A program made the position numbers and the translations under genes. A stretch of 26,451 nucleotides of DNA from Baffinella frigidus (Eukaryota > Cryptophyceae > Cryptomonadales > Baffinellaceae): assembly GCA_026770585.1 (NCBI GenBank), contig MU646372.1, positions 378,040-404,490 of the forward strand, written 5' to 3'. The notes under the pieces were generated by a model. The model worked only from the letters and a program-made list of their open reading frames with translations, did no database searches and was not told where the DNA came from. Positions 100 through 26,405 of this stretch are shown one piece after another. Numbering within the stretch: the first letter of the stretch is position 1; each line of letters opens with the position of its first letter.

Positions 100-2306
100 C
101 TTGCGCGCAGCCTCCCACTCGATGCTGTACGGCTGCGAGAGCAGCACGCCCTCCTCCCCCTCCCCGCCCAGCCCGCGCGCCTCCGCCAGCTTCCTCTGCA
201 CCGCGTAGAACCTGGGACAGGGTGTGGGGTTCGAGCTGTGTGCGTAGAAACCTGGCGCAGGGTGTGGGGTTCTAGCTCTGCCTCACTCGGGTTGATAGAC
301 TTTTCTCATGTTGGCATGCCTCCCCCTCCCCGCCCAGCCCGTGCGCCTCCACTAGCTTCCTCTGCACCGCTTAGAACCTGGGAGAGAGTGGGGGGTTCTA
401 GCTCTGTCTCACTGATAGATATCAAGGTGGCATGTTGCATGTGCGGTACAAATTCGTCAACGTTGGCTCCCCCCTCCCTGCTGTACCGCGTAGAACCTGG
501 GACAGGTTGTGGGGTTCGAGCTGTGTGCGTAGAAACCTGGCGCAGGGTGTGGGGTTCTAGCTCTGCCTCACTCGGGTTGATAGACTTTTCTCATGTTGAC
601 CGCTAGCTTCCTCTGCACCGCGTAGAACCTGGGAGAGGGTGGGGGGTTCGAGCTCTGCCTCACTGATAGATATCTCGTTGACATGTTGGGTGTGCGGTAC
701 AAATTTGTCAACTTTGGATCAGCACGCCCTCCTCCACCTCCCCGCTGAACCTCGTAGAACCTGGGACAGGGTGGGGGTTTCTAGCTCTGCCTTACTCGGG
801 CTGATGGCGCAGGATGTGGGGTTTGAGCTCTGCCTCACTCGGGTTGAAAGACTTTTCTCACGTTGGCATGTCGGGTGTGCGGGACAACCCCGTTAACTTT
901 GGAGCGGGAAAGAGCCCGGGCTGAACAAATGGGTGAGCGAAATAGACATGAGGCAGAGCTACAAGTTTTCGGGTGAAGGCAGGGGTTAAGCGCGTGATGG
1001 GTGCAAGACCTCAAAGCGTGATGCGGCACACGCCCCCGGGAACCGTCCGCCTGAGCGAAGCTCGCCTGAGCGAAGCGACCAGGGTGCAGCCTACGCTAGA
1101 CTGAGGGGGGGGCAATCAAAAGTCCATTTCGACCAATTCCCCTGGATTTCTGTCAACTTTTTGGCGGAATCCTCAGAATCTGAGGATTCCACCACTGAGT
1201 TGACTTTTGATTGACCCCCGTCACGTCTGAAGGAGGGAAGCACGAGGGGTGCACGGAAGCAAGAGGGGGGCAGGGAAGCAGGAGGGCACGGCACCTGTCC
1301 TTGAACATTTCCGTCGTGCGTTGGCTGGACCCGTCCCAGCGGTCCTGCGGCGTCCATCCGGGATAAGCTCTATACGTTTCACGCCAGAAGTTGAGAACAA
1401 TGTTTTCACCCAGGAGTATACGGATTTGTACTGGATGCAAACAAGGCACATCAACTTGCAAATTCCAGATTAATTATGGCAGAGCTAGGCAGGCGCTGCG
1501 CAGGTTCCAGCGCTGTGTGTGCGGTCCTTTCGCCCCAGGATTCGAGCGGTACGATGCCAACTTTTCGTCATGTCCCACATTTGATTTTCCTCCCCCACCT
1601 TCTTTTTGACCACTCGTTCTGACCACACCACGCGCAGGGATGGCTGTGTGCTCGGAGCTTCCGTTCGCGTGCAGTACACACAGGCGCCCCTGCATCTTCG
1701 AAACCCAGTGTGTCGTGTGGACAGACCTGTATCATGATGAAGTTGAGGTCGAAGCGAACGGTGAGCTTCATGAGTTGATCCGTCTCCTGCTTCGTCCATT
1801 CCGGCACCGCCAGATGCCGCGTGTACTCCTCATCTGTGTATTTCAGGATGGATACCTGCACCATTTTGTCATCAGCCACCAATTCGCCTCAAAGGTTGGA
1901 CCAGACAGAGCTTCGTGGCACACAGCGGGGAGAGGATCCTGTACGAGACAGCGGTGGGGGAATACAAGGGGAGGGAAAGGGATCAGATGCAGCGCAAAAG
2001 GCATGCAGAGTCCATGCGGGTTACTGGAAGGGTACACACCGTCTTGTGGAAGCGCGCAAAGGGGTACTCCTCGATAGGCTGGCCCTTCCTCTGCCAGTGC
2101 CGCAGCTCCAGCCCGTCTGTGCGGGAAGTGTTGGTGAAGGCCTTCCACTCCCAGCTCGAGGACCCCCCCAACGCGCTCTGCTTCTTGCGCTCCTTCAGGA
2201 CCGACAGCGGCTGCGTCGGCATCATGCTCACGGGAACCCCCGAGTCCGACCGCCCCGCCCGCCGCGTCGCTTCCATCCCGCCGCCCTCGGACATTTTTGG
2301 ATCCAT
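100..2306 (-). CDS. DMAP1: DMAP1/SWC4 homologue, 5' part (four exons, 3' end off window)
   Basis: Exons on the minus strand: 2306-2040, 1855-1727, 1344-1295 and 211-100, each bounded by GT-AG and joined in phase, giving 186 residues. Family knowledge: DMAP1/SWC4 is a nuclear subunit of NuA4/TIP60 acetyltransferase and SWR1/SRCAP remodelling complexes, with a SANT/Myb-like domain. Seen here: the W-x-W-x-x-FT motif (about residues 52-58), YPFARF (81-86), YTDEEY (95-100), a W-T-K-x-ET-D helix start (109-115), RFDLNF (123-128), DRWD (133-136), RTTEMFKDR and FYAVQRKLAEAR. Exon 2 aligns to the family without a gap across the exon 1-2 junction. The start at 2306 is a guess: the REVYAL motif usual upstream is not recognisable, so an earlier exon may exist. 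Intron 3 is 1083 bp and filled with partial copies of exon 4. Confidence 0.85.
212..905 (-). repeat. Degenerate tandem copies of the DMAP1 exon-4 acceptor and exon start
   Basis: Read on the minus strand, the real exon 4 starts at 211 after CCCAG. The same junction, AG followed by GTTCTAC or a close variant, recurs near 376, 495, 626 and 757, with weaker versions near 247 and 532. Segment 200-313 recurs almost unchanged at 485-598. The copy at 376 carries about 65 bp of exon sequence but turns the TAC codon into a TAA stop. Between copies sits a second unit, a GTCAAC-containing sequence with GTGCGGTACAAAT, at about 432-465, 678-717 and 868-900. All this lies inside intron 3. Confidence 0.85.
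1091..1230. mobile_element. MITE-like inverted repeat in DMAP1 intron 3
   Basis: The arms GGCAATCAAAAGTC (about 1111-1124) and GACTTTTGATTG (1202-1213) are inverted repeats. A 25-bp palindrome with a one-base centre sits at 1166-1190. The left end CTACGCTAGAC and much of the left half match the element at 9450-9585, so both belong to one family. The right end here is eroded. Confidence 0.75.
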
Positions 2307-2451
2307 TTTTGTCAACTTATGACTTCTTAAGTTGCCTGTCCAGGTGGTTGACCTAAAAATCCGAGGAAAATCTCACACGAAATTCGAGGTTTCTCATCCA
2401 GAGGACGGGTGAAATCGGTGGGTGGCGTAAAAGAGATCGTTCGTTGGCGAC
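2307..2451. promoter_or_regulatory. Putative bidirectional promoter
   Basis: The ATG chosen for the DMAP1 homologue (2306, minus) and the ATG of the ubiquitin-like gene (2452, plus) are only 145 bp apart and point away from each other. No TATA box or known operator was recognised. The role is inferred from geometry alone and depends on both start choices. Confidence 0.45.
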
Positions 2452-5400
2452 ATGGCGGGCTACGGGAACACCCCCGTTCAGCCGCAGGGCACGGCGCAAC
2501 TTGACGAGATGCTCCAGCGAAAAGACCTCGCTCCCGGTACGACCCCTGGCCAATTTTCACCCCTCGGAACGCACCTCTCCCCCAAACGACCCTTGAGGCC
2601 AGAACGTTAACGTAGCCCTGAGACAGCCACGCACGAGACCTCTTAGGCGGGTGCGTCGGGCCCACTCCACAAAACCGGGCTGGGTAGCTGACGAGAGCAT
2701 GCTACCTCAAACAGCCACGCGCGAATGGCTGGTGCGCAACTCGGGCGTGTCGATGGAGGACCTCGCCGCGAAGCGCGGCGACGGGGCGCCTGAGGACGAC
2801 GCGTTCAGCGAGCTGCTGGCGCGCAAAGACCTCTCCGAGGACAGCAAGGTCGCTCCCCTGAGACTCTCGCAGAACCGCTGCGTTAATTCAAGTGAGGTCT
2901 TGGAAAGACTCTGAATTCATGGCACGCATCCGGGTGTATATCCAAAGCTTGCATCACTGCAGGCACTTACGGCTGCGTGTGTCGGCCTCCGGCAGGTGTG
3001 GATCGCGAGCCAACGCGGGTTGCGGGGGGGTCGTCAGGTTCAATCCCTTCACCCTGCACCCCCCTTATTCCCTAACCCCTGAACCCGACGCCCTAAAACC
3101 TTCGACACTAACAACTGAACCCTAAAACCTGAACCCTAAACCATAAACCCTCAACCCTAAACCCTCAACCCTAAACCATAAACCATAAATCCTGAAACCT
3201 CAACCCTAAAACATAAGCCCTACACCCTACACCCTACACAGAACACCCGATACCCTAGACCCTACACCCTAAACACTAAACCCTACACCCTAAAACCTAA
3301 ACCTTCAACTGTAAACCCCAAACCCTAAACCAACCCCTAAATCCTAAACCCTAATTCTAAAACCTGAATTCCCCTTAACCCTAAACCCTAAACCCTAAAT
3401 CCTGAACCCCAAGCCCTAATCCCAACACCCTGCACCCTCCTTATTCCCTGAACCCTAAACCCTAAACCCTAAAATCGTCAACCCTAAACACCAAACTCTG
3501 AACCCTGAACCCTGAACCCTAAACCCTAAACCCTAAACCCTAAACCCTAAACCCTAAACCCTAAACCCTAAACCCTATACCCTAAACCCTAAATCCCAGA
3601 CCCCAAACCATAAACCCTAAACCCTTAACCCTAAACCATAAACCCTAAACCCTAAACCCTAAACCCTAAACCCTAAACCCTAAACCCTAAACCCTAAACC
3701 CTAAACCCTTAACCCTAAACCCTTTACCGTAAACCTTAAACCTCAACCCCAATCCATAGACCATAAACCATAAACCATAAACCATAAACCATAAACCATA
3801 CACCATACACCATAAACCTTACACCATAAAACCATAGATCCCAGACCCTAAACCCCACACCCTAAACCCCAAACCCCAAACCCCAAAACCAGGCCGGCAA
3901 GCCGTCGGGTGCAGCAGCTCTCAAAGGCATGTGCATCTACGTCTGCGAACCAGGTCCTTTCTTCTTCTTCTTCTTCTTCTTCTTCTTTATTATTACTCTC
4001 AGAAACAGACCTCCAGGTCTTTCCCCCCCCTGGGTGTTGCGCGCTCCCATCATAGGGGGGCACTGGAACGTGTTCTGCTCTCAAAGGCATGTGCATCTAC
4101 GTCTGCGAACCAGGTGCTTCCCCCGCCTTAGGTCTTCCCCCCCCTAGGTCTCCCCCCCCTTAGGTCGTCCCCCCCCTAGGTCTTCCCCCCCTTAGGTCGT
4201 CCCCCCCTTAGGAAGACCTGCGAACCAAGTCTTCCCCCCCTCAAGTTTCGCGAGCTCCCATCATAGGCGGGCACTGGAACGTGTTCTGCTCTCAAAAGGC
4301 ATGTGCATCTATGTCTGCGAACCAGGTCCTCCACCTGTGGGGACAAACCCGTTTGTGTCATCTACAATACTTACATGGCGCGACTTGTGTAAAGTCACTC
4401 CGTCTATGCCTGCATGTGGTTTATTCACAGACCCCCCCATAGGTTTTGCGAGCTCGCATCATACGCGGACACTGGAACGTATTCTGCAGGGTGGCTGTGC
4501 TTTGTTTCACACATCGAACCGTCCAGTGTGGAGGATATCACCAGTTTCCTGTTTATCATTTTAATCAATTCTTTTCTGAGAGCAGAACCGGCGCACGGTG
4601 CAGCCCAGCGTGCGCGAACCCCGCCAACACTCCCGATTGGACCAAATCGTCCATTTTAGATGTTAGATTTGCCCTTGATTTACCCTTGCAGAGACCCCGG
4701 ATCCGGGGTCTCTGCAAGGGTGAACCTCAAGTCTAAAATCGATGATTTGGTCCAACTGGGTGGGTTGGTGGACCCACATGGCCTGCAGGAGGGGGCAGAC
4801 GGCAGCTGACCCCTACACCTGTTGGAGCCATCGAAGCACACAGCCGGTGCTGCGAACAACGTTTTTCGTTTTTCGAAAAACGTTTTTCGTTTGTTTGTTT
4901 ATGCAGGCACGCGTTCGCGCACCCGCCGTGCTCCCTACTTTCCCCTGTCTACTCTCGCTGTATACGTATATGTAGTGCCGTGGTCGGAGTTCCCCATCAT
5001 CCCCTCCTATCCTCACTACCCATACTGGCGCAGGCATCAGCTGGGGAAAAATGGCGCTTGGTTCAAGCAGCCTAGGAGAATTTTTGGGGGGAGGTTGGCG
5101 AGTGACCCGCGCGCTCTTGTTGGCATTATCATGGCGGAATATCGAGGTGGCGCTGTGGGCGGAAGTGTCAGCTGAAATGAATGGCGTTTTTAAATTCACA
5201 CTCTATTTCCTTTTCAGTATCCGGGCGCAAGATCGAGGTGGCGCTGTGGGCGGAACTGTCAGCTGGAAATGCGCAGCATGTTTTTATTCACACTCTATTT
5301 CCTTTTCAGAATCCGGGCGGAAGATCGAGATAGCGCTCTGGGCGGACGCCACGGTGGGGGAGCTGCGCGAGCGGCTGCGGCGGGTGTGCGCGCGCGGGCG

Positions 5401-8400
5401 CTTCCGCTCAGGTTAATAGGGCAACGGCCTGAAAATGGGGTACTTAGGCCTACGGCATTGCCCAGGATCTCCTACCGTAGGCCGAGACTTTTTGGTCCTA
5501 GGATCCCTCGGCCTACGGTAGGAGGTCCTAGGCAATGCCGTATGCCTAACTACCCCATTTTCAGGCCGTTAGCCTATGAAGGTGCTCCACCCCTGCACTT
5601 GACGAGGCCGTTGCTGTTTAGGGTTTTGGTTGAGGGTTTGGGGTTGAGTGATCGTGGATGTTCAGCTGGGTGTGCGCGCGCGGGCGCTTCCGATCAGGTG
5701 CTTTAGGGTTTAGGGGTCAGGGTGCAGGGTGCAGGATCTAGGGTTCAGATTCCAGGGTCCAGGGTCCAGGGTCCAGGGTCAAGGGTCCAGGGTCCAGGGT
5801 TCAGGGGTCTGGGGTCAGGGTCCAGGGTCCAGGGTCCAGGGTTCAGGATTCAGGGTATAGGGTTCAGGGTGCAGGGTTCAGGGTCCAGGGTCCAGGGTCC
5901 AGGGTCCAGGGTCCAGGGTGCTGGGTGCTGGGTGCAGGGTTCACTCCAGCACTTGATGCGGGTGGTGCTGCATGATCGTGTCAAGTTGCTAGCTTTTGGC
6001 TTTTGGTTCAGCGGTGCCACAGGCATCATGCAGGGTGTTGCGTTTTCATCCCGCCAGGCGTTTAAACTAAATGCTCGAAATGCATACGTCTGGCGTCAGA
6101 AGTTGCCAGAAGTTGCCAATTTGGCCACTTCAGGCAGAATCTGCCGCCAAAAGTATTGCATTTCGAGCATTTAATGTAAATGGCTAGCGGGATGCGTTTG
6201 CGCGACGCACCCCGTGCGTGCTGTTGACGTCGCGAGGTGGCAGGGCACGAGGGGAGCGGGGTGACGATGGCGACCGAGGACGACGCGTGGACCGGCAAGA
6301 AATTGCTGCACGGGACTAAGGTGCTCGGGGCGGACTCCGAACCTCTCTCCGACTTCGAGGTACTCGCGTCGCTTCCTTGCTGGGGAACGCGCCAGCCTCT
6401 CAACTGTGTTTCTCGAAGATTTCATATGAAAATGGTTTTGATTTAAAACTTCTGGGCAATGAAATTTACTACATAGCATGATCTTTATGAGTAATATAAA
6501 AGAATTCGTGCAGTAATTTGCATTGATTCCTAAAGTGTTGAATTAAAACCGTTTTCATGTGAGATTAGGACGTCATCATGCACCGGGGTAAAAGTTTTCA
6601 ACCCTTTCTGATAAGGTTCTTTGACTTTTGAAATCCACTGCCTCGAGGAGAAATTGACTGTTGGCAACCCCTTCCAAGAATCTGGCGTGGCTCGTGTGCA
6701 AGCGTGCAGTTCTTGATGCCGCCGATTGGGAAACTGCTTTTTTTTATCCAGCCCCTCCGAGCAGCATCTCAGCCCTCCCACACTCCCCCCACACCCGAGA
6801 CCCTAAACTCTAAACCCTAAATCCTAAACCCTACACACTCAACCCTAAACCCTAAACCCTAAACCCTAAACCTTAAACCCTAACCCCTAAGCCCTAAACC
6901 CTGAACCCCAAACCCTAAACCCCAAACCCAAAACCCAAAACCCCAAACCCCAAACCCAAAACCTAAACCCTAAACCCTAAACCTGCTCCCTAACCCCTAC
7001 ACCTTAACCCAAAACTTCAAACTCAAATCCTGAACCTAAATCGCGAGGCGCACTGCAGGTGGTCGACGGGTCCGTCCTCTTCCCGATGAACAGTTTCCCC
7101 ACGGTCACCCCCCCCCCCCCCCCCCCCCCAGGATTGTTGGGGGGGGTAATTGATTTAATTAAGGTGCATGAGTAAAATTACCTATGCCGTAGTAATTTAT
7201 CCCATGATTTCTCCTATGCAACAATGAAAATGGCTCCCACGGTCTTCTTCCCCCCCCGCAGTTTCACCCGGACGAGTTTTGGTAAATTCTTTTTCGGGGA
7301 CCCCCCAATCTAGTCCCGGCGAGTAGTCCTCAGGAATACGGTTTTGGTGTATCTTAAAGAGTGGAAATTAGACAGTCGCCTGTCTAGCCTTCACTCATAG
7401 CCCTAAGATCCACCAAGATAGAATCGGAGATCCCCGAAATCGTACTCCTGAGGAATACTCGTCCCGATGAGATCGCGGTTAAGTCTCCTCCCATCAGAGA
7501 TGCCGCCTGGTTTGCCATCTGACCCCCCCGCAGTCTCATCTAGATGAGTATTTACGGTCAATACCTTTTCTGGGACCTTCGCCCCGGTCCAGCTTGAAGT
7601 GAATATTGGCCTTCACGTTCTCCACGCCAGGCTCTTGGGTAGGGTATTCCAGGGTCGTACTTGGAGCCATTGGGTCGTTCATGGAGCCGTTTTTAACCAA
7701 CTACTGACTTTTGAATACCGCTTTCCCTTTAAAATGACTTGTGAATACCCCCCCCCTCCAATCCTGTGTGGCAAGTTCACACTCTCCCCACCAGAGGTGC
7801 CACCTGGTGTGCCTCGGCCCTAGCCCCTGCCCTGCATGCTTCGGCAACATCCTCCAGGTCCGTGAGGTTTTAATTTCGCCCAACATGGCCCAACGCTCTC
7901 TCCCGTAGAAAGGATCTCAACAACCTTCAGGTCCTTCAGGTTGTAATTTCTCCCCAACATGGCCCAACAGCACGCCCTTCCGTAGCAAGGATCTCCTGGT
8001 GGGTCATGCAGGCCCTCGGCACCATCCGGCAACCCCCGAGGCCCCTACGGCCTACCGCCAGCCCTCCCAAGTGGCTCAAATAGTGCCCTGGAAGGTCTTC
8101 GATTTTACCTTGGATCGGGGTCACTTTTGACCCCGATCCAAGGTAAATTGAAAAGGTCCCAGAGCACTATTTGAGCCACCTTCAAGGGCTCGTGGTACCG
8201 TAGGCAATACCGTAGGCTCAGCTACCCGGTTTTCAGGCCGTTGGCCTATCCCAAGATTCGCAGTTCTGCACGCCCCCTAATCGCCGAGCCTTCTTTCCCG
8301 TGTGTGCGCAACCTGCCGCGCCAGAGTCTTGGAAGGGTCTCTCCAGCCGATGGCGCCAAAGTCTGCCGAGGCGGGCCTATCCCCGGATAATCCTCACAGC

Positions 8401-10014: not shown

Positions 10015-10081
10015 TAATACATGTGCGTGTACTTGACGTCATGTCAGGGGGTTGTCCTCGGCTCCTGCGCATAGGCCTCCG

Positions 10082-10202
10082 TACAGGGGTACCTCGCTCA
10101 TGCGAAACCGCCCCTCCTGTAGGACCATCATAGGGCCCTAGGCATGTTGCCACTGTAGGGTCCTAGAGTGTGGCGGTTTCTTATGAGCGAGGTACCCCTG
10201 TA
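10082..10202. mobile_element. CAGGGGTACC-family MITE (copy 3)
   Basis: Intact inverted termini with TA on both sides. It lies 68 bp after the stop codon of the ubiquitin-like gene, in its 3' flank. Confidence 0.9.
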
Positions 10203-10419
10203 GGGACCCTAGGGCAGTGCGTGTTGTTATTCGCGATTATCCTTTGTGGCCGTGAGGATTATCCGGGGATAGGCCCACCTCGGCAGACGTTGGCGCCATC
10301 GGCTTGAGAGAGCCAGGATCAGTCAACAGGGCCTATCCCTGGATGGACCTCACACACGCAAACTTCTGCTGGGCCGCGCGAGTCACACCAGTTGTGTGTG
10401 TCTAGGCTCTAAGGGCGTG

Positions 10420-10545
10420 TACAGGGGTACCTCGCTTATGAGAAACCGCCTCCCCCTAGGACCCTACAGTAGGCCTATGCCTAGCTAGGACCCTACGGTG
10501 GTCCTAGGGGGGGGGGGGGGTTCTTATGAGCGAGGTACCCCTGTA
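10420..10545. mobile_element. CAGGGGTACC-family MITE (copy 4)
   Basis: TA-flanked, with inverted termini and an expanded G14 run inside the right arm. It splits a duplicated segment: TCTAGGCTCTAAGGGC occurs before it at 10401 and again at about 10819. Confidence 0.9.
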
Positions 10546-14880: not shown

Positions 14881-14881
14881 G

Positions 14882-16200: not shown

Positions 16201-16239
16201 CCCCCCCCCCCTGAAAAGTGCTCAAAAGTGTCCACACAG

Positions 16240-17096: not shown

Positions 17097-17578
17097 AGGG
17101 CTTATTCGAAGTTAAGGTCACAACATTTTGAGACAGTAAGTTTGCGGACCTTAAATAATTAAGGTCGACAGAATCTGAGTGCGGACCTTAAATAGTTCAG
17201 GTCCGCAGAAAACGAGTGTGTGGACTTTGAATGTGGAACTTAAAAAAACCGGGTCAAAAAATGTGCCCTTTTCGATATTTTTGTTCGAAAAAGTGCCATT
17301 TTCGGCACTGTTTCGGCCTTTTTCGACCCGACAATTGGCAAATGGTAGCACTCTTTGGACCCGAAAATTCTCCAGCTCCATTCTCCGGGGGGTTGAGCGA
17401 TGTCGGGCCATTTTTTCCCCGCTGCATTAAGGTCCGCAGACGGTCATTGTGCGGAACTTAAATAATTAAGGTCTACAGCAAAACGAGTCAGGGTGTGGAC
17501 CTTAAATAATCAAGGTCCACATCGGAATAACCAGTGTTTGACCTTCTATTGTGTGGCCTTAACGTCGAGTAAGCCCTG
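17097..17578. mobile_element. 482-bp TA-flanked foldback transposon
   Basis: Ends CAGGGCTTATTCGAAGTTAA (17097) and TTAACGTCGAGTAAGCCCTG (ending 17578) are imperfect inverted repeats, flanked by TA on both sides. Inside, GGACCTTAAATAATTAAGGTC motifs (palindromic, split here: GGACCTTAAAT / AATTAAGGTC) recur near both ends, at about 17145, 17190, 17455 and 17498. No transposase frame was seen, so it looks non-autonomous. Confidence 0.85.
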
Positions 17579-17649
17579 TAGGCCTATGCCTAGGGCCCTA
17601 TGGTGATCCTAGGGGGGTGGGCGTTTCTTATGAGCGAGGTACCCCTGTA
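17579..17649. mobile_element. Right half of a CAGGGGTACC-family MITE
   Basis: It begins at GTAGGCCTATGCCTAGG, the family's centre, and runs to GGTACCCCTGTA. Its left half is replaced by the end of the 482-bp element. This is consistent with insertion of that element at the TA of the family core, with the element at 16986 as neighbour or remnant. Confidence 0.8.
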
Positions 17650-17760
17650 CCTTGCATAAATAGGTGCACCCCTCTAGGACCCCACAGTAGGCCAATACCT
17701 ATGGCCCTACTGTGGTCATACGAGGGGGTGCGCCTCCTGATGAGCAAGGTACCCCTGTAC
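17647..17760. mobile_element. Diverged GGTACC MITE relative
   Basis: GTACCTTGCATAAATAGG and CCTCCTGATGAGCAAGGTAC arms with a CTAGGACCCCACAGTAGG core. The right terminus CCCCTGTA is retained. Confidence 0.75.
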
Positions 17761-17985
17761 ACATGTAGCCCACTTCCTTCCAAAGACGTACGTACACACA
17801 CTGCCTAGTTCCCGCACAAATGTTTCCCGGCAGGTTCATTCTTCCTGGCGGCAGGGTCAGCGATGAGGCAGCCCACTTGCTCCCAAAGATGTACGTACAC
17901 GCACTGCCAACCCCCCGAACAAACCTATCACCCACGCTTCATTCATCCATTCATCCGTCCGCGCGCCAGGATCCGGGATACAACC
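17761..17985. repeat. Duplicated spacer downstream of the right-hand gene
   Basis: GCCCACTTCCTTCCAAAGACGTACGTACAC (split as AAAGACGTACGTACACACAC at 17779) recurs as CCACTTGCTCCCAAAGATGT ACGTACACGCAC at 17872. Just beyond, GAGTGACTTTACACTCTG is repeated twice in tandem at about 18002-18037. Confidence 0.7.
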
Positions 17986-18040
17986 CCGTGTAGGATGGCC
18001 GGAGTGACTTTACACTCTGGAGTGACTTTACACTCTGCCT

Positions 18041-21000
18041 TCAATCGTCCTTGCGCGCGGTAGGGTCCGCGAGGAGGTGCTTGAGCAGCCTGGCCACCTC
18101 CCCCAACTGCTCTTTCGCCTTGCGCACCTGCAGAGGGGCCCGGTGAGTGTTGAGGAAGAACGGGGGTGTGTTGAGGAAGGTGCTGCGCGCGTGTGCACGC
18201 GCGGGTGCACGCGCGTGTGCACGTGCGTGTGCACGTGCGTGTGCTGACACCACGCGCGTAAACGGACACACAACCCGCGTGACAGGGGTACCTCGCTCAT
18301 AAGAAAGCGCCTCTCCCCAGCTAGGACCCTGCAGTAGGACTACGCCTAGGGCCCTATGGTGGTCCTAGCGGGGGGTAGCGCTTTCTTATGAGCGAGGTAC
18401 CCCTGTAAGGGTCCGGTGTGTGTGTTCAGGAAGGGTGCGTGCGTGGCGAAGAAGGGTGTGTGAGTGTTGAGGAAGGACGAGGGGGCGTTGAGGCAGGGTG
18501 GTGTGTGTGTGTTCGTCCACGCCCTTGGTGCCAGCACCCGCGCGTTTCTCACGGCATGGTGCACGCGAGCGTCAAGCACGTGCCTCGCGCCACAGAGCAA
18601 ACCGCTGTCGAGCCAACTCGGCACATATAAGACAGTCAGGACCGGGATTCCGGTCCTGGCTTTTCATTTTAAAAGTGCATTTCCTTCTGGATTCAGTTTA
18701 AAGTTTTTAAAATTGTGTCCCGTCCTCGCTCGGTAGCGGCACGCGTCACGCACGTTTCAAACGGCACAGAGCGAGCGAGCGTGCGGGCTTCCTTTAGCCT
18801 TCAGAGGGCCATATCCCTTAAGTGGCGAGTAGGCGCATACACCCTACCGTAGGGCCCTAGGACCTGCCTAGGACCTCTTGCGGGTCAAATTTGAGGCCAC
18901 GGAGCGAAGAGACGTCAGACGGGCGGGCGGTCCTTCAGGTCCGTTAGGTTCATCGCGCTACCACCATACGCGGAACTGGTTCTGCACCACTTCGCATGGT
19001 ACAACTGGTTCTACCATGCGTCCGTTCGGATCACGGGCGCGCGCACCTGAAGAAGCTCCAGACGCCCCTCTCCCAGAGTGAGCAGCTCCCCACGGTCCTC
19101 CTCCCCGTCTTTCTCGCGCTCCTCCGCTCCGCTCTTTTCGCGCTCCGCTTTAGCCTCCTCGTTGTCTGCCCCGCGCTGCCGTTTTCCTGAAGCACGCGGG
19201 CGGGTGATACGGTTGTGTTAGGAGCGCATTTTCCTGAAGCACGCGGGAGGGTGATCAGGTTGGGTTGGGAGCGCTCCCCTGCTAATCTCCATACAAGTAT
19301 TAATTGATTGCTTTTGGCAACGAAAATTACTACACGATTTGCTCATAAAAGTAATAGTAAAGCTTTTGTGTAGTAAATTTCGTTGCACCAAACGCAATTA
19401 ATTAATACTGTTGTGGAGATGACTGTCATCTGGTGGCGTCGACCGTCGGATCCGGTGTCAGCCTATGTTGGGAGCTCGAAAAACCTACCACCAACCCTCA
19501 CAGTCTGGGCAAATCGGGGAAAATAGCTCCGAAAATCTCATTGAAGGCCGTCGGATTCCGACGGCCTCCAAGGGGATTTGGTGTTTTTTGACTTTTTCGA
19601 TTTGCCCAAGTTGTGAGGGTTGGTGGTAAAGGACCTAAAGGTGGCGTCGGTGGGGGGGGGGGCAGAAGGGGGCGAGCGAGGCGAGGAGGTGCTCGATCAG
19701 TCAACCTCACCCAACTTTATCATGCGGCAGGGTCAGTCAACCTTACCCAACCTTATCAAGCGGCAGGATTAGGCGGCGCATCTCCACCTCGCATACGACC
19801 TTGCTGGTGGGGCGGTGCAAGCAGTCCAACCGGGAACCACTTCATGACATGAGTTACTCGGAATTACGGACACACACCGCCCGTAGGGTGGTCCTGTGCT
19901 CCTAGGACTAGCCCTACTGTAGAACCCTGCGACGGCGCGTGTCCTTGAATTTGAGTAACCCTTGAACCGGCTGAGTGTATTCCTTGAGTGGCAAGTAGGC
20001 TCACACGCCCTACCGTAGGGCCCGAGGACCAGCCTAGGACCTCTGCGGGTCGTTTTCGACCCGCTGGCCACTTGCGGGATAGTTGAGGGGTAGAGCGAAG
20101 CAGATCTTGCTCAGGGACGAGCAAGCGTCTCTGCGCGGCGCTCAGCATCAAGTACAGGGGTACCTCGCTCATAAGAAACCGCCCCCCCCTAGGACCCTAC
20201 AGTAGGACCCTGCCTAGGCTCCTATGAGAGACCTAGGGGGGGTGCAGTTTCTTATGAGCGAGGTACCCCTGTAACCCCAGTATCGGCTGAGTGTGGAGTG
20301 GAGAGGTCGAGCGACGCAGACCTTTCATGCAGAAAGCTTGCGTTATAGGAGGACTTATTTGGTGTTCGCGAACGTAAGTGTTTGGCATTACCGTGCTCGA
20401 GGGCGAGGAAGCGTTTCTGCGCGGCGCTTAGCATCAAGTAACCTTAGCATCAAGTAACCCATGCACCGGCTGAGTGTGGAGTGGAGGGGTAGAGCGGTCC
20501 AGACCTTGTTCGAGGACGAGTAAGCGTTTCTGCGCGGCGTCAGATCTGACCTCGCTGGTGGGGCGCCACTCGAGTGTTGGCTGAGTGTGGAGTGGAGGGG
20601 AAGAGCGAAGCACACCTTGCTCCAAGGACGAGGACGATATATCACCCGAGCGGTGATGATATATCCCCCGAGCGGCGATATAACCCCCGAGTGGTGATAT
20701 ATCCCCCGAGCGGTGAGGGCAGGAGAGGGGGGGGGGACCTTGCTCGAGGACGAGGAAGCGTTTCTGCGCAGCGCTCAGCATCCCCAGCACCCGTCCCTGC
20801 ACCGCGCCGCGCCGTCAGCATTTGTGGGAGATGATAGACTCAGGGAGGCGACACGCGAGAGCAGAAAGATGCTCTAGAGAGTCACCTACCCAGAGTCATA
20901 CATCACCGAGTATACAACAGTATACGAAGATAATACGGGGAACGTCACTTGAGTTCGCGAGGCAGTGGGCTTCGACGCTGGAGTCGCTGACGGCGACCTT

Positions 21001-23697
21001 CGTTACCACGTGTGCACACCGCTGGACGCGCTTTGTAGGAAGCAGGCACACAGTGTGAGAGATAATCAGACTGCGCGTCGCGCCGTTACCACGTGTGCTT
21101 GGTCACCAGACCAGCATCCCCAGCAGCCTTCCCTGCACCGCGTCGCCCCGTTACCACGTGTGCACAACGCTGGACGCGCTTTGTAGGAAGCAGGCACGCA
21201 GTGTCAACGCTGGAGTCACGCTCTAGGCGCACGCCCACGTGCGCAGCCCCCGCGGCCAGCACGTGCAGACCCACTTCAACGCTGGATTCGCTCTGGTCAG
21301 GAGCCACTCCACACGGTGGGCTGCGGATCTGTCAAGACCCCCAGATCTGGGGGCCACGTTATCAAATTTGTACCAGAAAACGTCAACCACACCGCTGGAC
21401 GCACTTTCGAGGAAGCAGCCACGCAGTGTGAGGGATAATCAGACGCCGCATCGCGCCGTCACCACGTGTGCTTCGAGGGAGATAATACGGGGGACGTCCC
21501 CCGTATTAGCCTCGCACTTGCGTTCGCGAGGCTGTCGACTTCAACGCTGGAGTCACGCTCTAGGCGCGCACGCCCACGTGCGCAGCGAGATCAGAGCTGA
21601 AGGAAAGACGTGCGACCGTCTGAGTTCTGCTCGCCAGACCGCGTGCGCACCCACTTCAACGCTGGATGCACTTTCTAGGAAGGAGCCACTCCACACGGTG
21701 GGCTACGGATCTGTCACCACTGTGCACAACGCTGGATTCACTTTCTAGGAAGGAGCCTCGCAGTATGAGGGGATAACCCGGCTCCTTGCCCGAAGCGGAC
21801 TCTTCCAAGCAAGGACTCCGTCCGCACACTCAGAACAAGCTCGCCAAACACCGGGACACACGGGGCGTGCGGGAAAGGCACACACCTGCGCTTTCTCGAG
21901 CATCTCCTCAAGCCCCGCAGCCCCCCCCATCAGCGCTGTCCGCCGCGCCCCCCCGCCGCGCCCCCCCCCCCCGGCCGCCGCCACCACCGCCCCCAGGAAG
22001 CTCATGATCTCGACAGCGGCGCCCCCTGCCTCGCTGGTGCCCGCCGCTGGCGCACTTGGTCCTGCCGCGTTGGTCGCCACCGCGGTGGCGTCGACCGTGC
22101 CGTCGGTGGCGTCGACTGCGGCGTCGGTGGGGGGGGTGGGGGGGGCGGGGGGGGTGCAGAAGGGGGCGAGCGAGGCGAGGAGGTGCTCGATCAGTCTCTC
22201 GAGAGCGGCCACGCCTGCATGCCACGCGGGTTTTTAGGACGGACCATAGGACGAGCGCGACTTCTTTCAGCGGAGAGAAGTGATTCATGTAGAGGAGAGG
22301 CACTTCCTCGCACACGGAGGAAGCGTCAGGCGTCTCCGCCCGAGGCGGGCCCGTCATAGGGCCCGTCCTCACAGTCAAGTCGTCTGCGCCCAGCTGGAAG
22401 CCACTTCGTCACAGCGGAGCGTCAGGTCACAGCGAGGCGTCAGTGTCCCGCTTCGTCACAGCGAAGCGTCTGCACCCCGCTAGGAAGCCCGGCTGCTCGA
22501 GCGAACATCGCCACGCGCAACAGACAACACCAGAAAGGCTTTCTGAGAAAGGTTTCCCTCAGCCAGGGCCGGGCGGGGGTCGAGGAGCTTATCCGGGGAA
22601 ACCTGTTTTTCTTTAGTTTGATGGCAAGGAAAATTACTACACAAATGCTTTAATATTACTAATAAGAACAAATTGTGTAGTAATTTTCCTTGCCATCAAA
22701 CTAAAGAAAAATAGGTTTCCCCGGATAAGAGCACCTTGGGCCGCGCAAACAAAACGTCAAGCGTCTGCGCCCCACCGGGAGCCACTATGTTTCAGCGAGC
22801 ATCGACACGTGCGGCAGGCACCGGCAAAGCTGAGAAAGGTTTCCATTCAGCCAGGGCCGTTCGGGGGGTCGAGGAGCACCTTGAGCCGCGCGCGCCTTGG
22901 CCGCTTCCTTCTCCCCTGCGCGACATGCGGGACTGCAGGTCAGTCATGGCCTGACCGGTCCAGAGTCGGCCACACGCCACATTCATAGGCTAACGGCCTG
23001 AAAATGGGGTAGTTAGGCATACGGCAGTGCCTAGGACCTCCTACCGTAGGCCGAGGGATCCTAGGACCAAAAAGTCTCGGCCTACGGTAGGAGGTCCTAG
23101 GCAATGCCGTAGGCCTAACTACCCCTTTTTCAGGCCGTTACCCTATTAACATGATTTCTTCGTCGAGAAAGTACTTATACCTGCATATGAAGAGCACGGA
23201 TGCGCGGCCAGTCCCAGTGCAGTCCTCGGTGAGGGTGCATGCGCCTACCGAACGCACTACGCGGAAGGACTAGAAACACATCGGGAATTGCGGCCAGTTC
23301 ACACACGTGTAACCGCGAATCGGACACATCATTGATTCCTCTGGCAAATTAACGTTTGGCAGGCATATGAAACCCGATAGCGTTTGGAGCATAATTACAC
23401 TTATCAGAGCATATTTACACTTAGCCCGTCCTCTTAGCAGGCTCGATATCCCGGGAGTTGACTCCCCTGTTTTGAGATACAACCCCGTCAACTTTTGCCG
23501 TGGACACCCGTCAACTTTTGCCGTGGACACCCGTCAACTTTTGCCGTGGACACGATCAGTTAACCCGACGGAGGCAGCGCTAGGGCTTGGGCGGCAGACC
23601 TCCCGGGTTGGCGTGAATCGGCGCCGAGAGCTCCCAGCAGACCCACAGCCTCTCCGGCAGCAGCATGCGCGCTTCTTCCTCCTGTCAGAGAGGGAGA

Positions 23698-23760
<63 letters not shown>

Positions 23761-23787
23761 CGAGAGAGAGAGAGAGAGAGAGAGAGC

Positions 23788-23856
<69 letters not shown>

Positions 23857-26405
23857 TGTGTGAGAGAGAGAAAGTGTGTGTGTCTGTGTGTGTGTGAGAG
23901 AGAGAGCGAGCGAGAGAGAGAGAGAAAGAGAGAGAGAGACCTTCCTTCATACCTGGCCAGCACCAAAGTTGACAGATTTGTACCACACACCCAGCACGTC
24001 AACTTACAAACAGCCCATGTCAACTTACGAATAGTCCGCGAGCCAACGCGCGAGTGAGACCTTGAGCGGAGGGGCGCGGCGGAGGAAGGCGTCCGTCTTC
24101 TCGCAGAGGGCCGCAGCTACGACGAGCGCCGCGAGTACAGGGCCGTTGGCCGCGCCATGCTCGCGCACGCGCGCGCGCCTGATAAAAAAACACCTGCGCA
24201 TCCGTGTTCGTTGAAATCAGGAGGGGGGGAGTCGTCAACTTAAAAACAGCGTCGTGAAATGTCAACTAACGTGTAAGCGTCGTCAAAATGGCGACCGACC
24301 CTTTCGTGCAGAGTCACACGCGCGCCTGCGTCAGAAACATAACTACTGGAAAGCCCCAGGGGAAGTTTCAAAAAGTTCGCGACACTCTGTTGTCGCACAC
24401 TTTTGAGCCGTTTTCTCCTCAAAAGGCAATTTTCACCCCAAGGACGTGACCGAAATTCGTCAAAAGGTAACCTACAAGTAATTTTAGTGTCGTGTCCAAG
24501 AATTTTGAGACTTCCTCTGTGGCTTTGCAGTAGAAGCGGCCGTGTTTTCATTCCTGTGAGAAACGTGGAACGGCGATGAAAGCAGGATGCTGTCGCGTCT
24601 TCATCTCACAGAATGTATTTATCAGTTGGTTTTAGAAAGTCAACTCCCCCACAAAATCGTCAACTTACGGCGATGAAAGGAGGGTGGTGTCGTTGCTGGT
24701 GTCGCTCGTTCTCACTCGTTCTGGTGACCGCCCTAGGGGCGGTGTGTGTGAGGGCGGTGTGGGGGGGGTTAGGGCGGGACCTGTTGCCCCCCCCCCCATC
24801 GCGACCGCGCGCGAGAGCAAAGCCAACTCCCCCACAAAACCGTCAACTTATTGTTTACTATCACTAATTAAATATCAAGTTGACGATCTTGTGGGGGAGG
24901 TGACTTTCGAAAACCAATTAATAAATACACTCTGTGAAGTGAGCCGGTTGCGTGAAGGCGCGGGGGTAGGGGGGGGGGCAGGACCTGTTGTCTTCCTCCC
25001 CGTCGTTGGACTCCAGGCGCGCGACCGCACGCGAGAGCAGCGCGCGCCACACACCTTCCACCCCCCGCGCATTCGGGCTCAGCGCCACCACACCACTCGA
25101 GGCTAGAAGAGGGAGTATTTTAAATGTGGGGTTGTTAAATGTAGTACCAGTCACGAGCCCGCGACACACCTTCCAGCCGCCGAGGTAGGAGGTGGAGTTA
25201 GAATCCATCCGGAAAATGCTAGTATGAGCGGCCGACACGGGGTACAGTAAGTGGCACAATGCGTAGCATGTGCTCGCCACACACCTTGAACCCCCCGTGC
25301 ATTCGGGCTCAGCGCACACGCCCCAACAGCACAGACGCTTGCGGTTAGGGTTCAGGGCTGAGTGTTGAGGGTTTGGGGTTGAGGGTTTAGGGTGTGGGGC
25401 TTAGGGTGTAGGGTGTATGAGCAGCGCTCGCCACACACCTTCCACCCTCGGTGCATTCGGCCTCAGCGCCACCACACCACTCGAGGCTAGAAGAGAGAGT
25501 TTTTAAAGGAGTTTTTTAAATGTGGGGTTGTTAAATTTAGTACCAGTCACGGGCAGGCTTTGGTCACGTAGCTGGGGGAATTCCCCCAGCTACGTGACCA
25601 AACGCCCCTATTCGTGTGAAAATTACTACACGTCTTTCCCCCCCTTCACTTATACAGGAATCCCTGTTTTAAAATAGTCACATTTCTAGCCTCGAGTGGC
25701 ACCGCCAGACGGTTCCACAGAGGCACCTCCAGGCATCAACCGAACCCCGGCGTTCCGTAGGGTGCTACGGTAGACGATACAGTAGGGTGCTACAGCACGC
25801 CGCAATTTCATTCGCAAACACTTATAATTTATAAACTGGATCTAATGAAATTTACTACACAGAACGATTTTTACTAGTAATATTAAAGCAAACGTGTAGT
25901 AATTTTGATTGAAATCCAGTTTATAAATTATAAGTGTTTCCGTATGAAGTTAGGTGCAAGCCAGAACACCGCCCCCCTTGCTCGGACAGCGAGGGGGTAA
26001 ACGGAACGGGCAATTTTATGGTACCCGGATTAAAAAGACCCGTCTGCCCCCTCGCTATCCGACCAAAGTACCTACCTGCCTTGAGAAGCAGCGCCTGTGT
26101 CCCAACGGACTCCCTACCGTCGGGTCCTAGGTCTTATCGCTTAGGGGTCATTCAAAACCCCTTCCAAGTCCGCTGTGTGGTCAGGTGCATGCCGGCACAC
26201 CGCCCTCACCTGCCTTGAGAAGCAGCGCCGCGCCATTCTCCCGGTCCTCCGCCGCAGCCACCAGCGACACCACCACCCCGCACACGGCCCGCTCCTCCTC
26301 CCCCACTCTCCCCCCCTCCTCCGCCCCGCCGGGCGGCGCCCAGGAGAGGATGCGAGAGGCGAGCGGGGGGGGGGCGGGGGGGGGGTCGCCGCGCCATAGC
26401 GCTCG
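18041..26405 (-). CDS. Unidentified helix-rich protein, C-terminal 387 residues (nine exons; N-terminus off window)
   Basis: Exons on the minus strand: 26405-26210, 25102-24985, 24178-24061, 23681-23600, 22915-22880, 22214-21886, 20796-20739, 19186-19047 and 18127-18041 (TGA). All borders are GT-AG, most with good pyrimidine tracts, and every phase agrees. Exons have strong third-position G/C. Residue order: a Pro-rich start, then AVCGVVVSLVAAAEDRENGA; then WRALLSRAVARLE; then NGPVLAALVVAAALCEKTDA (the last resembles the first hydrophobic helix, suggesting a helical-repeat solenoid); then VAALERLIEHLLASLAPFC, an Ala/Pro/Gly-rich low-complexity stretch, GLEEMLEKAQ and LGMLSAAQKRFLVLEQ; then a charged coiled-coil-like segment (about 315-345) and EQLGEVARLLKHLLADPTAR at the end. 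Cellular role and family unknown to me. The introns carry exon-edge copies at most exons. Confidence 0.75.
18140..18281. repeat. GTGCACGCGC / TGTTGAGGAAGG minisatellite, first part
   Basis: GTGTTGAGGAAG units (about 18145-18182) and GTGCACG(C/T)GCGT units (about 18190-18243) lie in the last intron of the right-hand gene. The array resumes after the MITE. Confidence 0.8.
18282..18407. mobile_element. CAGGGGTACC-family MITE (copy 7)
   Basis: Intact inverted termini and core. It is inserted into the GTGTTGAGGAAGG minisatellite, which continues at 18416-18500. Confidence 0.9.
18811..18903. mobile_element. CCCTTAAGTGGC-family MITE (copy 3, right arm lost)
   Basis: The left arm TATCCCTTAAGTGGC and the CCTACCGTAGGGCCCTAGG core are present. 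The right arm stops at GAGGCCAC without the AAGGGATA terminus. Confidence 0.75.
19187..19262 (-). repeat. Tandem copy of the exon-8 acceptor
   Basis: On the minus strand, the real acceptor GCGTGCTTCAG|GAAAAC at 19186 is preceded 47 bp upstream by the same sequence (junction at 19233), ending GAAAATGCGC before returning to the intron. Confidence 0.85.
19285..19420. mobile_element. Palindromic element, TTACTACAC-core group
   Basis: Arms ATCTCCATACAAGTATTAAT and ATTAATACTGTTGTGGAGAT. The core has GAAAATTACTACACG and GTGTAGTAAATTTCGTTG. The arms are unrelated to those of the other core-sharing copies. Confidence 0.85.
19478..19625. mobile_element. Hairpin around a GGCCGTCGGATTCCGACGGCC palindrome
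   Basis: AACCTACCACCAACCCTCACA (about 19480) pairs with TTGTGAGGGTTGGTGGTAAA (about 19611). The next inner segment, TGGGCAAATCGGGGAAAA, pairs loosely with TTTTTCGATTTGCCCA. The centre is a 20-bp palindrome at about 19547-19566. Confidence 0.8.
19632..19702 (-). repeat. Displaced partial copy of exon 22214-21886
   Basis: On the minus strand CTGATCGAGCACCTCCTCGC and the following CTCGCTCGCCCCCTTCTGC match the start of exon 22214-21886, about 2.5 kb away. They end in a C-rich run. The flank GGCGCGGTCGAC-type sequence does not match. Confidence 0.8.
19853..19959. mobile_element. GTTACTC MITE variant
   Basis: GTTACTCGGAATTACGGACAC and GTCCTTGAATTTGAGTAAC inverted arms with CCGTAGGGTGGTCCT...GACTAGCCCTACTGTAG core. 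It lies next to CCTTGAACCGGCTGAG, a unit of the exon-7 copy array. Confidence 0.75.
19978..20082. mobile_element. CCCTTAAGTGGCCA-family MITE (copy 4)
   Basis: Diverged arms TATTCCTTGAGTGGC and GCCACTTGCGGGATA. It is inserted within a copy unit: CCGGCTGAGTG lies to the left and GTTGAGGGGTAGAGCG to the right, contiguous in the units at about 20466-20495. Confidence 0.85.
20083..20738 (-). repeat. Array of copies of exon 20796-20739 3' end with donor and intron start
   Basis: On the minus strand, CTGAGCGC(C/T)GCGCAGA(A/G)ACGC followed by TT(C/G)CTCG(T/C)CC(T/C)(C)GAGCA recurs near 20105-20150, 20395-20432, 20508-20545 and 20615-20640. Each copy is followed by CTCTACCCCTCCACTCCACA-like intron sequence. 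Some donors are spoiled (AAG|AT at about 20107). A short GGTGATATATCCCCCGAGC minisatellite (about 20643-20715) separates the array from the real exon. Confidence 0.85.
20153..20273. mobile_element. CAGGGGTACC-family MITE (copy 8) with paralogous empty site
   Basis: Flanks CAGCATCAAG|TA and TA|ACCCCAGTATCGGCTGAG. The uninserted paralogue at about 20441-20470 reads AGCATCAAGTAACCCATGCA then CCGGCTGAG, with a single TA. This gives a direct TA target-site duplication. Confidence 0.93.
20797..21780. repeat. Complex direct-repeat intron (ACCACGTGTGCACAACGCTGG units)
   Basis: Units such as ACGCTGGA(G/T)(T/C)CACGCTCTAGG, CACTT(T)C(G/T)AGGAAG(C/G)AGCC and CCGTTACCACGTGTGC repeat many times between 20960 and 21775. 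A fragment at about 21108-21150 repeats CAGCATCCCCAGCA and CCCTGCACCGCG, the start and acceptor of exon 20796-20739 read on the plus strand. A hairpin GATAATACGGGGGACGTCCCCCGTATTA is at 21481-21508 (split here: GATAATACGGGGGAC / GTCCCCCGTATTA). Confidence 0.8.
22215..22584. repeat. Short direct repeats, CTTCGTCACAGCG(A/G)AGCGTC
   Basis: CTTCGTCACAGCGGAGCGTC, GTCACAGCGAGGCGTCAG and CTTCGTCACAGCGAAGCGTC occur between 22405 and 22470. A longer duplicated segment, TGAGAAAGGTTTCC(C/A)(T)CAGCCAGGGCCG and following GTCGAGGAGC, occurs at 22540-22588 and 22831-22877. Confidence 0.75.
22589..22728. mobile_element. Palindromic element, TTACTACAC-core group, with 4-bp target duplication
   Basis: Nearly perfect arms of about 55 bp (TTATCCGGGGAAACCTGTTT outermost) enclose GGAAAATTACTACACAAA and TTGTGTAGTAATTTTCC. 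GAGC is present on both sides (22585-22588 and 22729-22732). The uninserted paralogue at about 22871-22885 reads GAGGAGCACCTTGAG, with one GAGC. Confidence 0.9.
22985..23146. mobile_element. MITE, CAACGGCCTGAAAATGGGGT family, inverted copy
   Basis: Ends ATAGGCTAACGGCCTGAAAA and TTTTTCAGGCCGTTACCCTAT. The inner part matches the reverse complement of 5416-5577 closely. Confidence 0.88.
23147..23483. other. Intron stretch without recognised features
   Basis: Unique-looking sequence between the MITE and the 24-bp repeat. No exon or palindrome was seen. Confidence 0.4.
23484..23553. repeat. 24-bp tandem repeat, three copies
   Basis: The unit CCGTCAACTTTTGCCGTGGA-CAC-C is repeated three times with almost no divergence, so it is recent. 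It contains the GTCAACTT motif found in other intron repeats of this window. Confidence 0.92.
23690..23940. repeat. GT and GA microsatellites forming a pyrimidine tract on the minus strand
   Basis: (TG)n fills about 23701-23757, then (GA)n blocks with short (TG)n inserts run to 23940. Read on the minus strand this is a 250-bp CT/CA tract ending TCTCCCTCTCTGACAG at the acceptor of exon 23681-23600. Confidence 0.95.
23958..24030. repeat. Dispersed GTCAAC repeat
   Basis: CCAAAGTTGACAGATTTGTA followed by CCACACACCCAGCACGTCAAC matches the reverse complement of 678-717 (DMAP1 intron 3) at about 36 of 40 positions by eye. It is followed by two further GTCAACTTAC motifs. Confidence 0.75.
24613..24930. 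mobile_element. Inverted-repeat element, GTCAACTCCCCCACAAAATC
   Basis: TATTTATCAGTTGGTTTTAG plus AAAGTCAACTCCCCCACAAAA (24616 on) is inverted at about 24880-24930, and a third partial copy lies at 24820-24850. Between them sit G/C-rich sequence and a copy of the exon 25102-24985 end (about 24770-24815, with CAACAG|GTCCCG on the minus strand). Confidence 0.7.
25120..25555 (-). repeat. Upstream partial copies of exon 25102-24985 and its acceptor
   Basis: On the minus strand, TCTTCTAG|CCTCGAGTGG occurs at 25486 as well as at the real exon (25102). The copy continues in frame for about 65 bp (SSGVVALRPNAPRVE, then GVWRALL) before it breaks off into a TAGGG-type repeat. A copy lacking the acceptor lies at about 25270-25310 and a more decayed one at about 25167-25185. 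The flanking ACTGGTACTAAATTTAACA-type intron sequence is duplicated too. Confidence 0.85.
25343..25420. repeat. Short TTTAGGG / GTGTAGGG array
   Basis: GTTAGGGTTCAGGG, GGTTTAGGGTG and GTGTAGGG variants in the intron between exons 26210 and 25102. Confidence 0.8.
25566..25604. repeat. Hairpin GTTTGGTCACGTAGCTGGGG
   Basis: TTTGGTCACGTAGCTGGGGG and CCCCCAGCTACGTGACCAAA form a tight perfect hairpin centred on GAATTC, followed by a lone GAAAATTACTACACG half-core at about 25618. Confidence 0.8.
25816..25939. mobile_element. Palindromic element, TTACTACAC-core group
   Basis: Arms AAACACTTATAATTTATAAA and TTTATAAATTATAAGTGTTT. The core has GAAATTTACTACAC and GTGTAGTAATTTTG. The arms are specific to this copy. 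Confidence 0.85.
25985..26062. mobile_element. Small inverted-repeat element next to a donor copy
   Basis: CGGACAGCGAGGGGGTAAACGG and CCGTCTGCCCCCTCGCTATCCG (each split at 20) are imperfect inverted arms. It lies inside a copy of sequence also found at 26180-26225 (GTGCA(A/T)GCC...ACACCGCCC...CCTGCCTTGAGAAGCAGCGC). Confidence 0.75.
26071..26100 (-). repeat. Copy of exon 26405-26210 end with donor
   Basis: On the minus strand GGCGCTGCTTCTCAAGGCAG|GTAGGTAC repeats the real exon end GCGCTGCTTCTCAAGGCAG|GTGAGG at 26210. It lies 134 bp downstream, inside the intron, and has a good donor of its own. Confidence 0.85.

What the first reader, a model, noticed from the sequence alone, without database searches (positions are those of the whole stretch)
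100..26405. Intronic partial copies of exon edges accompany many exons
Seen directly: exon borders with their splice junctions are repeated, partly decayed, in the adjacent intron. Acceptor-side copies occur for DMAP1 exon 4, ubiquitin-like exon 4, and exons starting at 25102, 20796 and 19186. Donor-side copies occur for ubiquitin-like exon 4 and exons ending at 26210, 24985, 22880 and 20739. A displaced internal copy exists for exon 22214-21886. Copies include exon coding sequence, so they are not simply intron minisatellites. Inference: some recurrent local duplication process acts preferentially across exon-intron borders, or such copies are retained there because they buffer or regulate splicing. 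I know of no named process that gives this pattern gene after gene.
Basis: partly seen in the sequence, partly recalled or inferred. Interest (0 to 1): 0.82.

Follow-up and report, generated by a model that had tools for sequence, protein, structure and literature searches.

The report
Half-exon copies left in neighbouring introns
In this alga-like genome about a third of sampled exon ends have a decayed copy of themselves in the adjoining intron, most likely harmless leftovers of ordinary local tandem duplication that splicing tolerates rather than splicing controls.

Summary
In the window, 9 of 29 scorable splice-border windows have a strong same-strand copy within 1 kb. It recurs elsewhere in this unnamed 382 Mb eukaryotic genome: 34 of 92 scorable ends of Pfam-anchored exons have one within 600 bp on the intron side, 1 of 92 beyond the exon, 0 of 92 in reversed sequence. 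Copies follow a half-exon rule: 5' halves upstream, 3' halves downstream, no whole exon detected. This fits local tandem duplication with one breakpoint in the exon and one in the intron: splicing keeps the exon-proximal border, and whole-exon duplication is presumably purged. Border preference is not shown: intron next to borders is duplicated about as often as deep intron (53/330 vs 179/1283; ratio 1.17, 0.71-1.83). Exon ends are seen about twice as often (1.94, 1.33-2.86), probably because they stay recognisable longer; a real exon-end preference is not excluded. A splicing role is not supported. Unexplained: exon-copy differences lie mainly at third codon positions (ratio 3.07, 2.38-3.81), more than a neutral copy predicts.

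The parts
84..210 (-). DMAP1 exon 4 (last coding exon in the window), acceptor at 210
   Evidence: Pfam SANT_DAMP1_like on the joined exons, E 5.3e-22; homologue P0001
319..407 (-). copy of DMAP1 exon 4 acceptor side (intron tail plus 58 nt of exon); in-frame TAA in the copy
   Evidence: 90% over 89 bp
467..545 (-). second copy of DMAP1 exon 4 acceptor side
   Evidence: 91% over 81 columns; coordinates read
600..657 (-). third copy of DMAP1 exon 4 acceptor side
   Evidence: 93% over 58 bp
720..789 (-). fourth copy of DMAP1 exon 4 acceptor side
   Evidence: 79% over 73 columns; coordinates read
5133..5346 (+). 92-bp tandem unit of 2.3 copies spanning polypyrimidine tract, AG and start of the ubiquitin-like exon (live acceptor at 5310)
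   Evidence: TRF, alignment 88%
5668..5699 (+). copy of the 3' end and donor of the ubiquitin-like exon (5382-5413)
   Evidence: 97% over 32 bp
5413..5580 (.). foldback (MITE-like) element at the live donor of the ubiquitin-like exon; the intronic copy of this donor lacks it
   Evidence: relative at 22982-23149
25419..25554 (-). copy of acceptor side of exon 25102-24986 (68 nt of exon plus intron)
   Evidence: 85% over 136 columns
25272..25315 (-). second copy of the same exon start, exon sequence only
   Evidence: 91%, 87% over 55 columns
21112..21162 (-). copy of acceptor side of exon 20796-20740
   Evidence: 84% over 51 bp
20502..20543 (-). copy of donor side of exon 20796-20740, GT kept
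   Evidence: 89%
20390..20435 (-). copy of donor side of the same exon
   Evidence: 91%
20103..20149 (-). copy of donor side of the same exon, GT changed to AT
   Evidence: 87%
19182..19274 (-). 47-bp tandem duplication reaching the acceptor at 19186
   Evidence: TRF; 88%
25950..26095 (-). copy of donor side of the exon ending 26210, split by a foldback at 25978-26066
   Evidence: approximate limits
22464..22746 (-). copy of donor side of the exon ending 22880, split by a foldback at about 22588-22731
19653..19702 (-). displaced copy of 50 nt of exon 22214-21886, in another intron
   Evidence: 98% over 50 bp

Best explanation
These are remnants of local tandem duplications (periods of roughly 50-550 bp, as left by repair of staggered breaks and then by unequal exchange within the array) that happened to have one breakpoint inside an exon and the other in the neighbouring intron. 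Splicing uses the border attached to the rest of the exon, so the protein is unchanged and the extra half-exon becomes intron. Duplications of a whole exon, or wholly within one, alter the protein and are purged. The copies then decay mostly as intron DNA, gaining frameshifts, stops and mobile foldback insertions. They stand out at exon borders because the exon is the slowly changing reference. Shown: position, strand, periods, half-exon rule, decay, and no significant difference between flanking and deep intron. Inferred: the molecular trigger, the purging, and the detectability argument.
For: Same strand and intron side: of 92 scorable exon ends, 31 have a copy scoring 24 or more on the intron side, 0 beyond the exon, 0 in reversed sequence, 2 in reverse complement; periods 64-531 bp, median 174. 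Whole-exon units would be about 20% of exon-touching units by geometry (match lengths used for exon lengths); 0 of 31 seen, P=0.001. Tandem signature: two downstream copies of L084 exon 2 begin at the same exon position (58) and are preceded by nearly the same 15-mer. Flank intron 53/330 versus deep intron 179/1283, ratio 1.17 (0.71-1.83). Third-position divergence of exon copies is 0.20 against 0.111 for intron-intron pairs, so exon copies seem to be seen to greater age. First-plus-second-position divergence is 0.63 (0.37-1.00) of intron divergence in 19 pairs and 0.065 against 0.163, about 0.40, in the wider set; an inert copy of a fully constrained exon predicts 0.5. 21 of 43 aligned copies have a frame-changing gap in the exon part. 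Local duplicates are common everywhere: 68 of 86 pairs in the window touch no exon.
Against: Exon-containing border windows exceed one-sided intron controls 2.48 fold (1.59-3.87), with similar divergence (medians 0.137 and 0.122) and gap density (1.84 and 1.97 per 100 bp) in the two groups, which weakens the detectability argument. Some young copies (96-100% identical over the exon, L079 and L075 donors) lose homology within a few bases of the splice site, and acceptor copies in L009, L062 and L065 (86-91%) start at the CAG with no homology before it; a plain tandem unit should not do this. Third-position excess 3.07 (2.38-3.81) exceeds the maximum near 2 for a copy neutral from birth, and base composition does not explain it. 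Only 1 of 144 classified copy-specific changes makes a stop. One copy in the window (19653-19702) is 2.5 kb away in another intron and so not tandem.
Confidence: 0.7

Rival explanations
1. Duplication or retention is truly concentrated at exon ends: something about exon DNA (GC content, transcription, splicing-coupled breaks) makes exon ends preferred sources.
For: 30 of 90 border windows against 170 of 1225 one-sided intron windows, ratio 2.48 (1.59-3.87), similar divergence in both groups. Windows centred 10-30 nt inside the exon 33-36% against 14% in deep intron. Homology ending close to the splice site in several copies.
Against: Intron adjoining the border, which a border-crossing tandem unit should include, is duplicated at about the deep-intron rate (1.17, 0.71-1.83; 1.31, 0.83-1.97 with shorter windows). 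No border peak in the two-sided full-flank profile. Window shift test P=0.30, or P=0.098 at the strictest score.
Confidence: 0.17
2. Copies are functional: decoy or spare splice borders, or alternative half-exons, kept by selection.
For: 26 of 30 copies covering the splice dinucleotide keep it, 21.6 expected from identity squared. Third-position excess 3.07 overall and 2.48 (1.55-3.91) among changes assigned to the copies.
Against: 21 of 43 aligned copies have frame-changing gaps, and those printed run into non-exon sequence. The polarised test is confounded because exon changes between two duplication events count as copy-specific. 77 of 144 classified copy-specific changes are nonsynonymous. 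Four of 30 covered splice dinucleotides are lost.
Confidence: 0.08
3. The copies are by-products of mobile foldbacks or of telomere-like repeat insertion, each insertion flanked by a long target duplication.
For: Foldbacks and AACCCTA-like arrays lie inside or beside several copies; a telomere-like array (25343-25416) separates two copies of the exon starting 25102.
Against: Telomere-like spacer content is not raised: 2 of 31 copy spacers against 5 of 61 borders without copy. In two window copies a foldback interrupts the copy, so it came later.
Confidence: 0.04
4. Assembly or gene-model artefact.
For: Window gene models other than DMAP1 lack homology support over cut-off; no RNA.
Against: Copies differ from the exon by 1-26% with separate insertions, and the pattern recurs at Pfam-anchored exons on many contigs.
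Confidence: 0.01

Closest known systems
Small tandem duplications from repair of staggered double-strand breaks (Schimmel et al. 2021, PMC8355091, passages only; Vaughn and Bennetzen 2014 known to me only from its reference list and from recall)
   Same: direct, same-strand local repeats with no required element; [quoted passage not shown]
   Different: periods here have a median of 174 bp, several exons have 2-5 copies, and the events seen are old and filtered by splicing
Tandem exon duplication / mutually exclusive exons (recalled; titles listed)
   Same: exon sequence repeated within a gene
   Different: here half-exons facing the border, no whole exon detected, and copies are decayed
Introners (Gozashti et al. 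2022, PMC9860276; passages only)
   Same: intron growth in microbial eukaryotes; foldbacks with inverted repeats are present here too
   Different: introners are element families inserted at many genes, some with 3-9 bp target duplications; these copies match their own exon
Intron gain by tandem duplication of an AGGT-containing exon segment (recalled)
   Same: tandem duplication next to splice sites
   Different: that model copies the downstream exon start at the intron start; here copies sit on the same side as their own border

Membership tests
Local tandem duplication | copies direct and same strand | tested here: met
   34 of 92 direct at score 20 or more, 2 of 92 reverse complement, 0 of 92 reversed
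Local tandem duplication | adjacent copies sharing a unit breakpoint | tested here: inconclusive
   shared breakpoint in L084 exon 2; 92-bp and 47-bp tandem units in the window; many other pairs have unrelated or masked flanks (of 31 copies at 85% identity or more, 16 extend at least 12 bases past the exon alignment above the shuffled limit)
Break-repair duplication | formed by fill-in at a staggered break | not testable with these tools
   needs new mutations or repair mutants
Introner | one element family repeated at many introns, making the intron | tested here: not met
   the copies match their own exon within 1 kb and lie in an existing intron; whether other genes hold the same copies was not searched; introners as described in passages of PMC9860276
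Tandem exon duplication | whole exon copied | tested here: not met
   beyond the exon 0 of 92 ends at score 24 or more and 1 of 92 at 20 or more, within 600 bp
Functional decoy splice site | use in RNA | not tested
   no RNA data at hand

The most novel reading that the evidence does not exclude
The half-exon copies are not inert from birth: they have been under protein-level selection for part of their life, for example as alternative exon ends or as spare sequence from which the live exon border is renewed by gene conversion, so that introns of this genome hold a turnover store of exon ends.
Probability: 0.08. Interest if true: 0.85.

Novelty: new variant of a known kind. Interest (0 to 1): 0.5.

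Why it matters
If about a third of exon ends in a genome have decayed half-copies in the adjoining intron, local tandem duplication is a major route of intron growth there, and the half-exon rule gives a countable readout of which duplications splicing tolerates. Gene predictors and alternative-splice callers would be misled by many false exon ends. The third-position excess makes one question testable: whether such copies are ever translated.

Tried and rejected
Telomere-like repeat insertion as the cause: not supported, 2 of 31 copy spacers against 5 of 61. Base composition as the cause of third-position excess: not supported, composition-weighted neutral rates are 0.112, 0.115 and 0.104 for positions 1-3; CpG context, with a mismatch rate of 0.183 and shares of 0.21, 0.16 and 0.26, could add a little. 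Polarising changes with multi-copy exons: inconclusive, see rivals. Two-sided controls gave 6 of 41 against 14.3%, then 30 of 92 against 20.0 expected; replaced by full-flank and one-sided designs, all reported. A junction-crossing count from raw BLAST gave 4 of 31 borders against 22% of intron positions, before foldbacks were excised. Foldback-end pattern in viral contigs: none. Rfam and tRNA searches of the window: none. Literature: among the papers listed I saw none that describes this pattern; I saw titles and abstract starts, plus passages of two papers, and searches listed only 12 of 13 and 12 of 387.

Rows dropped: kinesin loci L056 and L057 (3 exons) were fetched because overlapping matches already hinted at copies; they are left out of the rate counts and included in the divergence counts. 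L058 and L059 came in the same request; L059 bore a stop flag. 69 of 146 listed Pfam matches (10, 79, 45 and 12) were used; 21 of 113 exon ends were unscorable (masked or cut).

Full report
WHAT WAS CHECKED. The window is G000:C70:378040-404490 of a 382,457,362-base genome in 1364 contigs. It is eukaryotic: spliced DMAP1 matches Pfam SANT_DAMP1_like at E 5.3e-22 and an MMETSP (protist transcriptome) protein at 62% over 74% of the query. The other gene models are weaker: the ubiquitin-like gene matches PF00240 only at E 0.18, and the two minus-strand genes at 18-26 kb have no Pfam match over cut-off.

THE COPIES ARE REAL. Alignments reproduce nine of the ten named borders well; the tenth (donor at 24985) is weak, 74% and partly homopolymer. 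The displaced internal copy is 50 bp at 98%. With foldbacks excised and simple repeats masked, 9 of 29 border windows score 20 or more against sequence within 1 kb; the shuffled 99% limit is 14.5.

BUT LOCAL DUPLICATION IS EVERYWHERE. In the window 592 of 2048 non-exonic control windows also reach 20. Shifting the whole border set gives a mean of 26.8% against 31.0% observed, P=0.30; at a stricter score 20.7% against 31.0%, P=0.098. Split by gene, DMAP1 plus the ubiquitin-like gene show 3 of 16 (no excess), the two unsupported genes 6 of 13, P=0.118 or 0.030 by score. Of 86 local pairs, 68 touch no exon.

GENOME SAMPLE. Pfam searches for chaperonin, kinase, kinesin and SNF2 listed 10, 79, 45 and 12 exon-level matches. 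I used 69 of these 146 matches in 52 loci, taking exon ends as match ends inside the domain, so borders are approximate. Of 113 ends, 92 were scorable. With 80-bp windows and 600 bp of target, 34 of 92 have a copy scoring 20 or more on the intron side, 1 of 92 beyond the exon, 0 of 92 in reversed sequence and 2 of 92 in the reverse complement; 31 score 24 or more, with periods of 64-531 bp, median 174. In an earlier pass that took the better of both sides, 33 of 33 hits lay on the intron side.

HALF-EXON RULE. Upstream copies carry 5' halves and downstream copies 3' halves. Examples (four loci printed): L084 exon 2 (114 nt) has an upstream copy of positions -21 to 63 and downstream copies of 58 to 114, 58 to 116 and 62 to 116; L082 has -24 to 70 and -30 to 82 upstream, 63 to 139 and 91 to 146 downstream. 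Two L084 copies begin at the same exon position and follow nearly the same 15 bases, the mark of an amplified tandem unit. By geometry about 20% of exon-touching units should contain the whole exon; none of 31 does, P=0.001. I infer that whole-exon duplication is removed by selection.

IS THE BORDER SPECIAL? Controls disagreed and all are reported. Two-sided: 6 of 41 against 14.3% in a first part of the sample, then with all 92 ends 30 against 20.0 expected, P=0.003, with uneven flanks in the controls. Two-sided with full 400-bp flanks: no border peak (exon -45: 0.31; border 0.30; intron +30 0.17, +120 0.39, +300 0.34), but intron values include the border copies themselves. One-sided, the fairer design because a border can only be copied to one side: 30 of 90 against 170 of 1225, ratio 2.48 (1.59-3.87). 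The decomposition separates exon from intron: exon side 84 of 321, ratio 1.94 (1.33-2.86) to deep intron; intron adjoining the border 53 of 330 against 179 of 1283, ratio 1.17 (0.71-1.83). With shorter windows the ratios are 1.91 (1.28-2.89) and 1.31 (0.83-1.97). A tandem unit that crosses a border should include the adjoining intron, so the process shows no clear border preference; the exon part is recognised more often. In line with this, third-position divergence of exon copies is 0.20 while detectable intron-intron pairs average 0.111. Against it, the divergence of the whole border windows resembles that of intron pairs.

FATE OF THE COPIES. In 19 pairs with both parts aligned, positions 1+2 diverge at 0.63 (0.37-1.00) of the intron rate; in the wider set the figure is about 0.40 (0.065 against 0.163). 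An inert copy of a constrained exon predicts 0.5. Frame-changing gaps occur in the exon part of 21 of 43 copies. Splice dinucleotides are kept in 26 of 30. However, over 77 copy alignments differences fall at codon positions as 0.062, 0.067 and 0.199, ratio 3.07 (2.38-3.81); a copy neutral from birth allows about 2 at most. Composition does not explain it. Changes assigned to copies show 2.48 (1.55-3.91), with 66 synonymous, 77 nonsynonymous and 1 stop, but exon changes between two duplications are counted there too. Either synonymous sites of exons change faster than introns, or some copies were translated for a time, or some duplications joined diverged alleles. This is open. Also open: in some young copies homology stops within a few bases of the splice site (L079 and L075 donors, 100% and 96%), which a plain tandem unit does not predict.

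MECHANISM. [quoted passage not shown] The step from there to this genome is inference. Introners (PMC9860276, passages) are a different thing. Telomere-like repeat insertion was tested and not supported.

VERDICT. Observation confirmed and shown to recur across the sampled gene families; border preference and splicing role not shown; most likely passive duplication filtered by splicing.

Noticed in passing
window 5413-5580 and 5668-5699: A foldback element appears to sit inside the donor of the ubiquitin-like exon; the live GT looks to be formed by one target base plus the element's first base, while the downstream intronic copy keeps an uninterrupted donor (my reading).
   Followed up: partly
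window 9330-9449, 9711-9831, 10078-10206, 10420-10545, 12150-12274, 18282-18407, 20153-20273 and elsewhere: A foldback family of about 120 bp with TA at its ends; a 27-base stretch of its end occurs 6012 times exactly in the genome, both arms counted (3035 forward, 2977 reverse).
   Followed up: partly
sampled loci (169189 bp): Telomere-like hexamers are C-rich on the coding strand more than G-rich (5.0% against 1.4% of bases): an orientation bias of telomere-like arrays near exons, perhaps because the C-rich strand resembles branch point and polypyrimidine tract.
   Followed up: no
window, whole: 47 self-complementary hairpin hits of 16-382 bp, many of them near-palindromes of 100-170 bp of different sequence, two of them inside exon-edge copies.
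   Followed up: partly
L056, L057 (kinesin genes): Multi-copy exon-end arrays, one with a 369-bp offset at 94% identity; stop codons are flagged in the neighbouring overlapping matches.
   Followed up: partly
window 12840-13150, minus strand: An ORF with a possible acceptor and a hydrophobic start (membrane anchor-like, my reading), no Pfam match.
   Followed up: no
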